Below are positions 20,472-24,731 of a DNA stretch of 64,000 nt, piece after piece. A program made the translations under genes and the position numbers. The DNA is from Alphaproteobacteria bacterium (GTDB lineage: Bacteria; Pseudomonadota; Alphaproteobacteria; UBA8366; GCA-2717185). Position 1 is the stretch's first letter, and every line of letters starts with the position of its first letter. Where the stretch lies: assembly GCA_012103325.1 (NCBI GenBank), contig WLWY01000002.1:124001-188000 (forward strand), read 5' to 3'. The notes under the pieces were generated by a model that was not told the origin of the DNA, did not search any database, and saw only the letters and a program-made list of their open reading frames with translations.

Positions 20472-20655
20472 TTGTATGACCCCCTATAAGAGTTGGATGG
20501 CATACAGTTTTCACTACTGCGGTAGTTTTTCCAAGTCTGGCAAACCTATGATCGAAGAATAGCGCTCGTGGATTCGCGGTGTGCAAAAGCTGTCGGCTTT
20601 CAATCTGCGCGGTTTTCTGTATTTCTACGGTGAAATATCGACGTGGAGTATGAAG

Positions 20656-22422
20656 ATGAGCGATGCGACGACGGAGACGCGAGCAGGGGCGGATTGGGTC
20701 GCGCCGGACTGCGCTGGCATGAACTTCTTTGCCGTCGACAAGGGCCTGCAAAGTGGTATCGCGGCTTATCTGCCAGAGGATTTGCGCACCGTTGTCGAAG
20801 CGCAAATGCGGCGGCTGGGCGAACTGGCGGGCGGGCGGCTCGACGAATTGGCGCGGATCGCCGACCGGCATCCACCGGTCCTGCACCCCCGTGACCGTGC
20901 CGGGCGCGACCAGGAAACCATCGAGTACCATCCGGCTTACAAAGAGATGGAGAAGATGGCCTATGGCGAGTTCTCCATCCACCGGATGTGTCATGTCGCG
21001 GGCGTGTTCGGCTGGCCCGAGCCGATGCCACCGCTGGTGCGTTACATCTTTCAGTATCTCTTCGTGCAAGGCGAGTTTGGGTTGATGTGCCCGGTTTCCA
21101 TGGCGGATACGGGCATTACGCTGATGCGCAACCGCGCCAGCCAGGAACTCAAGGACAAGTACCTGCACCGCATGGAGTCTGACAATATCGACGAATTGTG
21201 GCGATGTGCGCAGTTCCTGACCGAGCAAGGCGCCGGATCGGATGTCGGCAATATTGAGGTCATGGCAAAGCAACAGGACGGTCAGTGGCGCATCTACGGC
21301 GACAAATGGTTCTGCTCAAACTCCGATGCCGAAACGATCTTGCTCTTGGCGCGCACCGAGGGTGCGGCCGCAGGCAGCGCCGGACTGAGCCTGTTTCTGG
21401 TGACGCGCTTCCTGGATGATGGCAGCCGCAACAACTATCGGGTCGTCAGACTGAAGGACAAGCTGGGTACCAAATCGATGGCGTCCGGCGAGGTGAAGCT
21501 CGAGTGTGCAATTGGGCACCTGATTGGTGAGGAAGGCAGCGGCCTACGTCAGATTATGAAGACGGTCAGCCTGTCACGTCTGTCGCACGGCGTGCGGGCG
21601 GCGGCAATGATGCGCCGGTGTTTGAACGAGTCTTTGCAAGTGGCCCGGAACCGCCAAGCCTTCGGTCAAAACATTATCGCCTTTCCCCTGCTGCGGCGGC
21701 AACTGATGAAAATCATGGTGCCGACGGAACAGGCACTCAGCATATTTCTCTTCACCGGACACGTTATGGCGGGCGCCAATAGGGGCGATGCTGAGGCGGA
21801 GAAATTGCTGCGCATCTTGACGCCGCTGATCAAGTTCCGCGCCTGCCGCGACAACGTTCCCGTCGCCACGGGGGCGATGGAGATACGAGGCGGCAACGGT
21901 TATATCGAAGACTGGGTCAATCCGCGTCTGATCCGCGACGCCCAGGTCGGACTGTTATGGGAGGGCACGTCGAACATCAATACGCTCGACGTCATCACCC
22001 GCGCGATTGGCCGCGTCGGGGCGCATGAAACGCTGGCCGCGTGCTTGCAGGACAAAATCGAGCAAACTCCAGGCCTGCCGGGCCAATTCCAAGGACTTCT
22101 TCAGGCGCAGGTGGAACGCGCGTTTGCGTTCGCCGAGTCGGTGTCCCGCGACCCGGCGCAGGAGGATAAGGGACGCCTTGCCACCAATGCGCTCTATCAC
22201 GCAACGACGGCTGTGCTGTTGGCGTGGGAAGGTGCAACCGAAGGGGCAAGGGGCGGGGACGCGCGTCGCTTGCTGCTTTCGCGTCTTGTGATTGACCATC
22301 ACCTTTTACCGCAGGACCCGCTGGCCTCTGGTGAGAACCGTTTCGATAAGGCGGCGGCGAATATCCTGTTGAATGACGATCCGGCCACTTTTTCGAACGT
22401 GAAAGATACGCTGGCGCTTTAA
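20656..22422 (+). CDS. Acyl-CoA dehydrogenase
   Basis: About 588 residues, long for the family (usual about 380) because of N- and C-terminal extensions as in FadE12/AidB-like and DmdC-type enzymes. The FAD-binding Q-F-L-T-E-Q-G-A-G-S-D-V signature lies near residue 195. The C-terminal R-G-G-N-G-Y-I-E-D-W and L-W-E-G-T-S-N-I-N-T-L-D-V blocks are typical. It oxidises an acyl-CoA to the 2-enoyl-CoA. ATG 20656 is chosen because GGAG is 7-8 bases upstream; ATG 20650 is the alternative. It leads an operon with a quinone oxidoreductase-like MDR, an enoyl-CoA hydratase and the Sec-GNAT. Confidence 0.9.
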   Translation: MSDATTETRAGADWVAPDCAGMNFFAVDKGLQSGIAAYLPEDLRTVVEAQMRRLGELAGGRLDELARIADRHPPVLHPRDRAGRDQETIEYHPAYKEMEKMAYGEFSIHRMCHVAGVFGWPEPMPPLVRYIFQYLFVQGEFGLMCPVSMADTGITLMRNRASQELKDKYLHRMESDNIDELWRCAQFLTEQGAGSDVGNIEVMAKQQDGQWRIYGDKWFCSNSDAETILLLARTEGAAAGSAGLSLFLVTRFLDDGSRNNYRVVRLKDKLGTKSMASGEVKLECAIGHLIGEEGSGLRQIMKTVSLSRLSHGVRAAAMMRRCLNESLQVARNRQAFGQNIIAFPLLRRQLMKIMVPTEQALSIFLFTGHVMAGANRGDAEAEKLLRILTPLIKFRACRDNVPVATGAMEIRGGNGYIEDWVNPRLIRDAQVGLLWEGTSNINTLDVITRAIGRVGAHETLAACLQDKIEQTPGLPGQFQGLLQAQVERAFAFAESVSRDPAQEDKGRLATNALYHATTAVLLAWEGATEGARGGDARRLLLSRLVIDHHLLPQDPLASGENRFDKAAANILLNDDPATFSNVKDTLAL

Positions 22423-22454: not shown

Positions 22455-23393
22455 ATGCGAGCAGTTGGATTGATGGTTCATGGCGGCCCCGATGTTTTGG
22501 AACTCGTGGACGTGCCCGAGACTCATGCCGGGCCCGGGGAGGTGCGGCTTCGTGTTTTCGCCGCGGCGGTGAACCCGACGGATACGATGGCGCGGAACGG
22601 GTCACGGGCGGAACAGCAAAAGCTCGATCCGCCGCCCTATGTGCCTGGCATGGACGCGGCCGGAATCGTCGACGAAGTCGGCGAGGGTGTTACGACCGGT
22701 GTGAAGGTTGGCGACCGGGTTATCGCCATGGTCTGTCCGAATGCTAATCATGGCGCGTACCGAGAACAGATCGCGCTGAAGGCTCGAGCGGTCGTTCCCG
22801 CACCGGCCGGGACCACGCATGTCGAAGCCTGCACCTTGCCCATGAATGGATTGACGGCGCGCCAGTCGCTCGATTTGCTCGGCTTGTCGGCGGGACAGGT
22901 GCTCGCGGTTACCGGCGCGGCGGGTGCCTATGGCGGTTATGTCATCCAGCTAGCGAAGGCCGACGGGCTGACGGTCATCGCCGATGCGTCCGAGGCTGAC
23001 GAGGCGCTTGTCGCATCGCTCGGTGCGGATATTGTCGTACGCCGTGGCGATGATGTCGCATCGCGCATCCGGGAGCATTTCCCGGACGGGGTAGACGGTC
23101 TTGCGGACGGCGCGGTTCAGAGCGAGCGCGTCGTTCCGGCGGTCCGTGACGGCGGCGCCTTTACCGCGGTGCGCGGATTTATCGGCGAGCCGCAGCGCGG
23201 TGTTACCTTCACGGCGACGTCCGTACGCGGCTACGATGGCGAGTTCGAGAAGCTAGACCGGCTCCGGCAGCAGGCGGAAGCCGGGGTCCTGACACTTCGT
23301 GTCGCGGATACCTATCCGGCGGCACAGGCTTCCGAGGCGCATCGCCGGCTGGAAGCGGGCGGCACGCGAGGGCGGCTTGTTCTCGAATTTTAA
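22455..23393 (+). CDS. Zinc-free MDR oxidoreductase (quinone reductase-like)
   Basis: 312 residues with the medium-chain dehydrogenase/reductase fold. It has the N-terminal G-P-G-E-V-R-L-R-V, the [10 protein letters not shown] catalytic-domain block and a Rossmann [10 protein letters not shown] motif near residue 155. The structural zinc Cys cluster of alcohol dehydrogenases is missing, as in NADPH:quinone or enoyl reductases. It may reduce an enoyl or quinone substrate in the same pathway as the flanking acyl-CoA dehydrogenase and hydratase. GAAAGG precedes the ATG. Confidence 0.88.
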
Positions 23394-23407: not shown

Positions 23408-24202
23408 GTGAGTAGCGAAGACCTCTTGTTCGAACTCAAGGATCATGTGGCGGTAATTACCCTGAACCGTCCGGCGCAGCGGAATGCGATCAGTCAGGCG
23501 ATGAGCCGAGAGCTGACCGAATATCTGCAGCGTGTGCGGGAAGATGACGACATTCGTGTCGCCATCATCACGGGCGCCGGTGGCACGTTCTGCGCCGGGG
23601 CGGACCTCAAGGAACGAGCGGCGAGTGGTGGCGAGCGGCGCGAAGATCAGTCACCGGCTACCGCAATCGAAGTCGATCTGGCCGCAAAATGGACGACGAT
23701 GAAGATCGAAAAGCCGCTGATCGCCGCCATCGATGGCTACTGCCTGGCGGGCGGCATGGAGCTATCGCTGGTCTGCGATATCCGGATCTGTTCCACAGAG
23801 GCGCAGTTCGGCCTGCCGGAGATCGTGCGCGGCTTCTTTCCGGGCGGTGGCGGTCCGCAACGCCTTGCCAAGAGCTTGCCCCAATCGATCGCGATGGAAA
23901 TCATCCTCACCGGCGACCGCATCGATGCCGAGACAGCGCTACGTGCGGGCATCGTAAGCCGCATGGTGCCCGCCGAAGCGCTGATGCCGACGGCGAAGAA
24001 GCTTGCAACACGCATCGCGGGACACGCGCCGTTGGCCGTCCGCGCGGTTAAGGATTTGGCGCAGGCATCGCAGGACGTCACCCTGGATCAGGCAATGCGG
24101 CTGGGTGGCGCACTGCGCTGGATCGTCGGCCAAACGGAGGACGCAAAGGAAGGGCCTCGCGCGTTCGCCGAGAAACGCGATGCTTCCTACAAGGGACGCT
24201 AG
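23408..24202 (+). CDS. Enoyl-CoA hydratase/isomerase
   Basis: 264 residues, the standard crotonase length. V-A-V-I-T-L-N-R-P-A-Q-R-N-A-I, then F-C-A-G-A-D-L-K-E-R (first oxyanion hole), then G-Y-C-L-A-G-G-M-E-L and G-L-P-E-I-V-R-G-F-F-P-G-G-G-G (second Glu region) are all in place. It hydrates 2-enoyl-CoA, matching the acyl-CoA dehydrogenase at the start of the operon. GTG start with GAAGGAGAAGG upstream; this start is decided by the ribosome site, 14 bases after the previous stop. Confidence 0.92.
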   Translation: MSSEDLLFELKDHVAVITLNRPAQRNAISQAMSRELTEYLQRVREDDDIRVAIITGAGGTFCAGADLKERAASGGERREDQSPATAIEVDLAAKWTTMKIEKPLIAAIDGYCLAGGMELSLVCDIRICSTEAQFGLPEIVRGFFPGGGGPQRLAKSLPQSIAMEIILTGDRIDAETALRAGIVSRMVPAEALMPTAKKLATRIAGHAPLAVRAVKDLAQASQDVTLDQAMRLGGALRWIVGQTEDAKEGPRAFAEKRDASYKGR

Positions 24203-24206
24203 GAAA

Positions 24207-24731
24207 ATGGGGTTTGCTATCGAAGAAATGCAGCGCCCGGATTGGAGTCAAGTCAGAGCGATTTACGGCGAAGGGTTAGCGACCGGGCTGGCGGCTTTTA
24301 TGATGACACCTTCGGTCTGGAAGGTGTGGGACGCAGGTCACCTATCGCTCGGCAGAACCGTTGCCCGCGATGAAAATGGCCGCATCCTCGGCTGGTCCGC
24401 CCTCGCACCCGTTCCCGACAATTGAGGCGCCGCCGGTGTCGCTGAGGTCAGCGTCTACACGAGTTCGGCAGCAAGAGGGCAGGGTGTCGGCACGGCGTTG
24501 CTGCGCCGGCTTATCGAGATTTCGGAAGCCGATGGTTATTGGACCTTACAGGCGCAGATCATCGCAGCGAATAAGGCGAGCCTGGCGCTTCACCGCAAAT
24601 GCGAATTTCGTGAGGTCGGTGTTCGGGAACGATATGGTCATATCGACGACACGTGGCACGACGTCATTTTGTTGGAGCGCCGGAGCGATCGGACAGGGGA
24701 CGTCAATCTACCGACGAAGACTTGCGAGTGA
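24207..24731 (+). CDS. ArsN1-like GNAT N-acetyltransferase, predicted selenoprotein, Sec73 (TGA 24423-24425)
   Basis: 174 residues of the GNAT fold read through one in-frame TGA. The N-terminal A-I-Y-G-E-G-L-A-T-G and G-R-I-L-G-W-S-A-L-A-P-V-P-D-N are followed by TGA, then G-A-A-G-V-A-E-V-S-V-Y. The acetyl-CoA loop A-R-G-Q-G-V-G-T and the C-terminal motif L-A-L-H-R-K-C-E-F-R-E-V-G follow. The pattern is that of phosphinothricin/arsinothricin N-acetyltransferases (ArsN1), as I recall them; these read P-V-S-S-R-C-V-Y-A-G-V-A-E-V-S-V-Y, so the TGA falls on the Cys. A SECIS-type hairpin follows. ATG 24207 lies 4 bases after the stop of the enoyl-CoA hydratase. Without Sec the gene would be called as two fragments. 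Read-through of a nonsense mutation is the alternative. Confidence 0.82.
24436..24460 (+). promoter_or_regulatory. Bacterial SECIS-like stem-loop of the Sec-GNAT
   Basis: After the TGA at 24423-24425, CGCTG (24440-24444) pairs with CAGCG (24449-24453) around the loop AGGT. GTGT (24436-24439) below it can pair with ACAC (24457-24460) across a 3-base bulge. The loop is 20-23 nt after the TGA, with G at positions 2 and 3. It is weaker in sequence similarity to the other two hairpins but matches in geometry. Confidence 0.7.

What the first reader, a model, noticed from the sequence alone, without database searches (positions are those of the whole stretch)
24207..24731. Predicted new selenoprotein family: Sec in an ArsN1-like GNAT acetyltransferase
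Seen: a GNAT gene is interrupted by TGA at 24423-24425, and the same frame resumes with the rest of the fold, including the acetyl-CoA loop. Seen: the TGA aligns with the Cys after P-V-S-S-R in ArsN1-type proteins as I know them. Seen: a stem-loop with SECIS geometry (loop AGGT at 20-23 nt, G at loop position 2) follows. Known: ArsN1 enzymes acetylate phosphinothricin-like amino acids such as arsinothricin. Inference: Sec73 may act as a redox switch or in arsenic/selenium chemistry; I know of no described Sec-GNAT. It sits last in an acyl-CoA oxidation operon, so arsenic may not be its context.
Basis: partly seen in the sequence, partly recalled or inferred. Interest (0 to 1): 0.95.

Follow-up and report, generated by a model that had tools for sequence, protein, structure and literature searches.

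The report
Selenocysteine acetyltransferase family in bacteria
A bacterial gene for an acetyltransferase-like protein carries an internal TGA stop codon, shared with an identical RNA hairpin behind it by 30 genes of its family, that is predicted to be read as selenocysteine; this would put selenium into an enzyme fold that the searched inventories do not list for it and would likely make the enzyme redox-controlled.

Summary
Confirmed and extended. The GNAT gene at 24207-24731 has one in-frame TGA (24423-24425). I found 30 distinct loci, this one included, with TGA at the same codon, in alphaproteobacteria and a second phylum. All 30 carry the same 16 bases (TCGCTGAGGTCAGCGT), a SECIS-type hairpin 19 nt after the TGA; in the 20 loci measured, five of its codons are synonymously frozen while the rest of the gene varies. 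The genome has selA, selB, tRNA-Sec and a selD that itself carries TGA at its Sec site. SelB is found in 27 of the 29 TGA-gene genomes searched. The TGA proteins form one clade with three linked features: Sec73, absence of the neighbouring Arg that gates substrate in ArsN1, and a C-terminal tail with a conserved Cys (29 of 30). Ordinary homologues often have Cys at the Sec column. I read it as a new GNAT selenoprotein family, kin to ArsN1 but not an ArsN1; a Sec73-Cys173 selenenylsulfide switch is my favoured, untested mechanism. No acetyltransferase is among the 119 prokaryotic selenoprotein families of a 2026 inventory. Selenium incorporation itself is not shown.

The parts
24207..24731 (+). 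GNAT gene, 174 residues if TGA 24423-24425 is read through; ends at TGA 24729-24731
   Evidence: dN/dS after the TGA 0.08-0.22 in the 9 of 11 pairs where it could be computed
24420..24422 (+). Asn72, at the column of the substrate-gating Arg of ArsN1 (PpArsN1 Arg77, by motif spacing)
   Evidence: Arg in 102 of 102 tail-less and Thr in 18 of 18 tail proteins of the 120 listed; role of Arg77 from PMC6465285 passages
24423..24425 (+). in-frame TGA, predicted selenocysteine codon 73
   Evidence: TGA at this codon in 30 distinct loci
24439..24454 (+). SECIS-type hairpin core TCGCTGAGGTCAGCGT: stem 24440-24444 / 24449-24453, loop AGGT 24445-24448
   Evidence: identical in 30 of 30 TGA loci; same-codon fraction 0.952 against 0.523 in the rest of the gene, 20 loci
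24474..24491 (+). acetyl-CoA binding loop R-G-Q-G-V-G (residues 90-95; motif label recalled)
24687..24728 (+). C-terminal tail residues 161-174 (DRTGDVNLPTKTCE), seen only in the TGA clade
   Evidence: low model confidence, block means 72 and 56
24723..24725 (+). Cys173, proposed selenenylsulfide partner of Sec73
   Evidence: tail Cys in 29 of 30 TGA loci
20581..22422 (+). upstream: acyl-CoA dehydrogenase / AidB-like
22455..23393 (+). upstream: alcohol-dehydrogenase-like oxidoreductase
23408..24202 (+). upstream: enoyl-CoA hydratase/isomerase, 4 nt before the GNAT start

Best explanation
The gene is predicted to encode a GNAT-fold selenoprotein in which TGA 24423-24425 is likely decoded as selenocysteine 73 by SelB acting on the hairpin behind it, and Sec73, predicted to lie at the mouth of the substrate site, likely forms a reversible bond with the tail residue Cys173 that would switch the acetyltransferase with the cell's redox state. 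Shown by sequence: the TGA, the hairpin, their conservation, the Sec machinery in the genome, the family match, the absence of the Arg that relatives keep at residue 72, and the tail Cys. Inferred: that Sec is inserted; that position 73 sits beside the active site (from alignment to PAT/ArsN1 enzymes); that it pairs with Cys173. The substrate is unknown and probably differs from arsinothricin, because an Arg that contacts the substrate in ArsN1 is missing. Likelihoods: selenoprotein 0.95; redox pair with Cys173 0.45.
For: TGA at the same codon in 30 distinct loci, in alphaproteobacteria and in the phylum of L069. Identical 16-mer in 30 of 30. Codons 78-82 synonymously frozen in 20 of 20 TGA loci but varied in 19 non-TGA loci. 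Protein after the TGA under purifying selection. Own genome: selA 573.8 bits, selB 453.7 bits, tRNA-Sec 71.4 bits with anticodon TCA, selD 412 bits with TGA in LSHGGG-U-GCK, an internal positive control. SelB over cut-off in 5 of 5 TGA genomes against 18 of 93 other relatives; 9 of 9 against 4 of 15; 9 of 11; 4 of 4. Cys at the column in 96 of the 120 listed proteins and 8 of 38 placed non-TGA loci. The TGA/tail proteins form one clade, SH-aLRT 96 in a quick tree. Among the 120 listed proteins the tail and Arg72 exclude each other without exception (18 and 102); no tail in 38 placed non-TGA loci. Model pLDDT 90.9 matches PAT and ArsN structures at TM 0.84-0.85.
Against: No selenium measurement. 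No Rfam family matched the window, hairpin included. SelB was not found in 2 of 11 named MAGs (G427, G430), whose completeness is not given; SelD over cut-off was found in only 3 of 5 TGA genomes tested. In the second phylum SelB is also in 3 of 3 genomes with only non-TGA homologues, so it does not discriminate there. The Cys share among listed proteins is favoured by a query with Cys at the column. Three listed proteins with the tail read Leu there (P0007, P0058, P0064), so Sec may have been lost in some, or they are gene-calling artefacts; their DNA was not seen. L144 loses frame after about residue 130, L113 has its N-terminal part out of frame, and G004 keeps only a deleted remnant, so the gene is dispensable in places. 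The hairpin never varies, so covariation cannot be tested; in 2 of 20 folds (L051, L066) it is not in the minimum-energy structure. The Sec73-Cys173 contact is not shown: no coordinates were available and the tail is predicted with low confidence.
Confidence: 0.85

Rival explanations
1. It is a selenoprotein, but Sec73 and Cys173 bind a soft metalloid or metal (for example a trivalent organoarsenical) and so select or hold the substrate; there is no redox switch.
For: The best NCBIfam match acts on arsinothricin (NF040503; PMC6465285 passages). The position adjoins a substrate-gating residue. Sec and Cys are good soft-metal ligands (general knowledge).
Against: Below the ArsN1 cut-offs, the Arg of relatives is missing, no ars gene among the neighbours identified.
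Confidence: 0.25
2. It is a selenoprotein in which Sec73 is the catalytic nucleophile and carries the acetyl group as a selenoester (ping-pong chemistry).
For: Sec replaces Cys beside the substrate site. Some acyltransferases use Cys this way (recalled).
Against: GNATs usually transfer directly from acetyl-CoA (recalled). Homologues tolerate Ser, Pro, Lys and others at the column. The mechanism would not need the tail Cys.
Confidence: 0.12
3. The TGA is a real stop: a pseudogene or a sequencing error.
For: Single TGA; some relatives carry broken copies (L026, L113, L144).
Against: The same TGA in 30 distinct loci of two phyla, an invariant hairpin and dN/dS well below 1 after the TGA.
Confidence: 0.02
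4. TGA is read as another residue (Trp under code 4, or general read-through) without selenium.
For: 14 listed relatives with the tail show Trp at the column.
Against: P0003, one of them, has a near twin (L069) with TGA in its DNA, so Trp looks like a table-4 gene call; the DNA of the other 13 was not seen. This genome carries selA, selB, selC and Sec-selD. The hairpin is frozen.
Confidence: 0.02

Closest known systems
ArsN1 family A/B arsinothricin N-acetyltransferases (NF040503, NF040504; PDB 5jtf, 5wph)
   Same: Fold (TM 0.85 to 5wph), length, best NCBIfam hit
   Different: Below the cut-off (110.5 against 170 bits); gating Arg replaced by Asn/Thr; Sec at the next residue; extra C-terminal tail with Cys; no ars gene seen nearby
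Phosphinothricin N-acetyltransferases (PDB 9igk/9igl, 5t7d)
   Same: Among the closest solved folds, TM 0.81-0.86 over these entries
   Different: 21-28% identity in the structural alignments; the R-x-R-x-x-Y stretch seen in 9igk is P-D-N-U-G-A here
Known prokaryotic selenoproteins (119 families listed in PMC13188914, Table 1)
   Same: TGA, SECIS-type hairpin, Cys homologues, Sec machinery
   Different: No GNAT or other acetyltransferase in the list (read)
Selenoproteins with a Sec-Cys redox pair, such as thioredoxin reductase (recalled)
   Same: Sec and Cys, one of them on a flexible C-terminal tail
   Different: Here Sec would be in the core loop and Cys on the tail; the pair is inferred, not shown

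Membership tests
Bacterial selenoprotein | in-frame TGA conserved at one column | tested here: met
   30 distinct loci
Bacterial selenoprotein | SECIS hairpin downstream: G in the first two loop positions, 16-37 nt from TGA, stem of at least 4 bp, MFE -7.5 or lower | tested here: met
   loop AGGT, 19 nt between TGA and loop, 5 bp stem, 48-nt MFE -16.9; criteria from PMC13188914
Bacterial selenoprotein | selA, selB, selC, selD in the genome | tested here: met
Bacterial selenoprotein | Cys in homologues at the Sec column | tested here: met
   96 of the 120 listed proteins (query had Cys there); 8 of 38 placed non-TGA loci
Bacterial selenoprotein | Sec present in the purified protein | not testable with these tools
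   needs 75Se or mass spectrometry
GNAT superfamily | profile match over cut-off and GNAT fold | tested here: met
   PF00583 49.9 against 20.7 bits; model TM 0.84 to 9igl
ArsN1 (NF040503/NF040504) | score over the curated cut-off | tested here: not met
   110.5 against 170 bits; 51.1 against 210; four other TGA loci 110.5-123. Five non-TGA homologues (124-143) miss it too, so this does not set the TGA clade apart
ArsN1 (NF040503/NF040504) | substrate-gating Arg (PpArsN1 Arg77) | tested here: not met
   Asn72 here; Thr in 18 of 18 tail, Arg in 102 of 102 tail-less listed proteins; register by gapless alignment to PAT 9igk and motif spacing, not by direct alignment to PpArsN1
ArsN1 (NF040503/NF040504) | gene in an ars operon | tested here: not met
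   the three genes upstream on the same strand are not ars genes, nor are two further neighbours; of 10 neighbours in 7 other loci, 9 had a Pfam hit and none is an ars gene; partial survey
ArsN1 (NF040503/NF040504) | acetylates arsinothricin | not testable with these tools
   needs an assay

The most novel reading that the evidence does not exclude
A redox-gated acetyltransferase: the first selenoprotein family on the GNAT fold, which arose when an ArsN1-like enzyme swapped its gating Arg-Cys for Asn/Thr-Sec and grew a tail whose Cys locks Sec73 in a selenenylsulfide, so that selenium chemistry switches acetyl transfer on and off.
Probability: 0.42. Interest if true: 0.92.

Novelty: new variant of a known kind. 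Interest (0 to 1): 0.82.

Why it matters
Most characterised selenoproteins have a thioredoxin-like fold (PMC13188914). A Sec in an acetyl-CoA-dependent transferase would bring selenium into acetyl transfer, a reaction with no obvious redox step, and asks what Sec gives there that Cys does not. The linked changes (Sec, missing Arg, tail Cys) make the question directly testable with point mutants. The family also seems to sit disguised in databases: a TGA read as a stop cuts it short, and listed relatives show Trp at the place.

Tried and rejected
Pseudogene or error: rejected on 30 conserved TGA loci and selection after the TGA. The loose SECIS scan alone was rejected as evidence, because 634 of 1706 TGAs pass. 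An Rfam scan of the window at gathering scores gave no hits, and no tRNA lies in the window. Gene neighbourhood: I saw no neighbour cluster shared at a constant place across the whole family; many clusters were shadow frames or came from close relatives, and not every cluster was annotated; the enoyl-CoA hydratase seen in 3 loci lies at different offsets. A defence role was looked for and not found (PADLOC, 0 families). My first automatic strand choice was wrong for several loci and was redone for 10 loci. In one search other rows with '1 TGA' exist; in L036 and L037 it is the terminal stop, the others were not inspected. In one search, 9 of 47 non-TGA loci could not be placed by my motif and were dropped from the counts; the 38 may include near-copies. 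Of the 44 loci (L091-L093) were not read. The protein search scored only the 8000 candidates sharing most words and listed 120 of 7823. Not in print: searches and Table 1 of PMC13188914 gave no selenocysteine GNAT; subscription journals, preprints and supplementary tables were not covered.

Full report
What is there. The window carries an ORF starting at ATG 24207, 4 nt after the stop of an enoyl-CoA hydratase gene, interrupted by TGA at 24423-24425 and continuing in the same frame to TGA 24729-24731. Read through, the protein has 174 residues and is a GNAT acetyltransferase by Pfam (PF00583, 49.9 bits against a cut-off of 20.7). The best NCBIfam match is ArsN1 family A at 110.5 bits, below the cut-off of 170. 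Upstream on the same strand lie an acyl-CoA dehydrogenase, an ADH-like oxidoreductase and an enoyl-CoA hydratase; downstream, on the other strand, a Rieske oxygenase.

Relatives with the same TGA. Of 98 related genomes searched, 5 (own included) hold a homologue at 60% identity or more with one TGA, and all five TGAs lie at the same column. A scan of public genome contigs gave 44 loci; of the 41 I read, 19 have TGA at the column: L050-L067 and L069. A draw of 385 genomes of the class gave nine TGA loci besides the own one (L105-L113), three of which repeat named ones. A search of 52 genomes in the phylum of L069 added L138, L139, L140 and L144. After dropping 3 duplicates from 33, 30 distinct loci remain.

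SECIS. All 30 carry TCGCTGAGGTCAGCGT behind the TGA. It folds as CGCTG-AGGT-CAGCG; the first loop base is the 20th nt after the TGA and G is at loop position 2, meeting the bacterial SECIS model quoted in PMC13188914. In the 48-nt folds this hairpin is in the minimum-energy structure of 18 of 20 sequences; L051 and L066 prefer another fold. Because the stem never varies, covariation cannot be tested. Instead I measured synonymous freedom: in 20 of 20 TGA loci codons 79-82 are single codons, and codon 78 is GTC in 18 and ATC in 2 (Val and Ile, last two bases unchanged); over codons 78-83 the same-codon fraction among pairs with the same residue is 1051 of 1104 (0.952) against 0.523 in the rest of the gene; in 19 non-TGA homologues it is 295 of 694 (0.425), with 0.350 in the rest. 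The protein after the TGA evolves under purifying selection: dN/dS 0.08-0.22 in 9 of 11 pairs where it could be computed, alongside 0.05-0.29 in 10 of 11 before the TGA. The loose SECIS geometry is met by 634 of 1706 TGA trinucleotides in the window, a strict form modelled on this hairpin by 3 of 1706, so conservation, not geometry, carries the argument.

Machinery. The own genome has selA (573.8 bits) overlapping selB (453.7 bits), a tRNA-Sec with anticodon TCA (Rfam 71.4 bits) and selD (412 bits), whose own DNA has TGA at the Sec site, LSHGGG-U-GCK (that this is SelD's usual Sec site is recalled). SelD is thus an internal positive control. SelB is over its cut-off in 23 of 98 relatives, including all 5 TGA genomes (5 of 5 against 18 of 93); in 9 of 9 TGA genomes of the class against 4 of 15 with only non-TGA homologues; in 9 of 11 named MAGs (G427 and G430 have no hit, L051 was not held); and in 4 of 4 further genomes of the second phylum, where 3 of 3 non-TGA genomes also have it. 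Together: 27 of 29 TGA genomes searched. SelD over cut-off was found in 3 of 5 TGA genomes tested (G000, G003, G035; not G002, G007); G002 and G007 are fragmented assemblies (910 and 650 contigs).

What sits at the column elsewhere. Among the 120 listed protein hits (of 7823; 8000 candidates scored) the column is Cys 96, Trp 14, Leu 4, Ser 4, Gly 2; the query had Cys in place of TGA, which favours Cys. The 18 that carry the C-terminal tail are Trp 14, Leu 3, Gly 1; the 102 without it are Cys 96, Ser 4, Gly 1, Leu 1. P0003 (Trp) is a near twin of L069, which has TGA in its DNA, so Trp most likely reflects table-4 gene calling; this is inference, and the other 13 were not checked. The three Leu proteins with the tail (P0007, P0058, P0064) remain unexplained. 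Of 47 non-TGA loci asked, 38 were placed: Pro 13, Cys 8, Ser 4, Lys 4, Trp 3, Ala 2, Arg 2, Gln 1, Glu 1; none has the tail. So Cys is one of several residues in the wider family, and the commonest among the listed best hits.

Three linked features. First, Sec73. Second, the residue before it: Arg in 102 of 102 tail-less listed proteins and in 37 of 38 placed loci (Lys in the other), but Thr in 18 of 18 tail proteins and Asn or Thr in the TGA loci printed. In PpArsN1, Arg75, Ala76 and Arg77 of one chain reach into the substrate site of the other, and Arg75 and Arg77 are proposed as gates (PMC6465285, passages). The R-x-R-x-x-Y stretch of PAT 9igk aligns without gaps to P70-D71-N72-U73-G74-A75, so Sec73 follows the Arg77 equivalent; for PpArsN1 itself the register is inferred from motif spacing. 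Third, a C-terminal tail of about 14 residues with a Cys in 29 of 30 TGA loci (the exception, L144, loses frame). The TGA and tail proteins form one clade, SH-aLRT 96 in a quick tree of 72 rows, 39 of whose 69 inner branches are weak.

ArsN1 membership. Five TGA-locus proteins score 110.5-123 bits against NF040503's cut-off of 170; five non-TGA homologues (P0006, P0013, P0031, L068, L015) score 124-143 and miss it too. The cut-off therefore says that neither group is ArsN1 in NCBI's sense; the missing Arg is what sets the TGA clade apart.

Structure. AlphaFold2 on a 47-row alignment (Cys in place of Sec) gives pLDDT 90.9 and pTM 0.88; block means fall to 72 and 56 in the last 14 residues. Foldseek's best match is a phosphinothricin acetyltransferase (9igl, TM 0.84), with ArsN 5wph at TM 0.85. 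No coordinates were available, so the 73-173 distance was not measured.

Mechanism. I commit to a selenenylsulfide switch: Sec73 at the rim of the substrate site and Cys173 on a flexible tail, in the same or the partner subunit, would lock the loop when oxidised and free it when reduced. For it: the TGA and the tail Cys occur together, the tail is absent from the Cys-type homologues listed, and the neighbouring gate residue is missing. Against it: no direct evidence of contact or of redox effect. Metalloid binding by the Sec-Cys pair and Sec as acetyl carrier remain open.

Novelty. PMC13188914 (May 2026) lists 119 prokaryotic selenoprotein families; I read its Table 1 and saw no acetyltransferase. 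Passages found by the words transferase and GNAT in PMC12013277, PMC9312934, PMC2398784 and PMC1088965 (at most 12 places shown per paper) show none; PMC8318568 has no occurrence of acetyltransferase or GNAT in its main text, but its supplementary list of candidates was not seen. Searches (listings) gave no paper on a selenocysteine GNAT. NCBIfam release 20.0 offered no selenoprotein model for this protein.

Noticed in passing
L097 1501-2430 (G000:C2:202092-203021): selD of the same genome itself has an in-frame TGA, at LSHGGG-U-GCK (TGA at L097 1531-1533), followed by a hairpin AGCACC-GTC-GGTGCT.
   Followed up: partly
L026 (G004:C35:34962-35087): A SelB-bearing relative keeps only the two ends of the gene, as if by internal deletion; the tail with its Cys is still readable.
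   Followed up: partly
L113 and L144: One TGA locus has the part before the TGA out of frame, the other loses frame after about residue 130; decay or assembly errors.
   Followed up: no
P0007, P0058, P0064 (protein search): Metagenomic relatives with the tail show Leu where close relatives show Trp or Gly; either loss of Sec or artefacts of gene calling.
   Followed up: no
L136 and L012 (genome G007): One genome carries both the TGA-type GNAT and an ordinary ArsN1-like paralogue with Pro at the column.
   Followed up: partly
L069 1218-2417: In the second phylum the gene lies next to a glutamate-cysteine ligase family 2 gene, a hint at thiol metabolism in one locus only.
   Followed up: no
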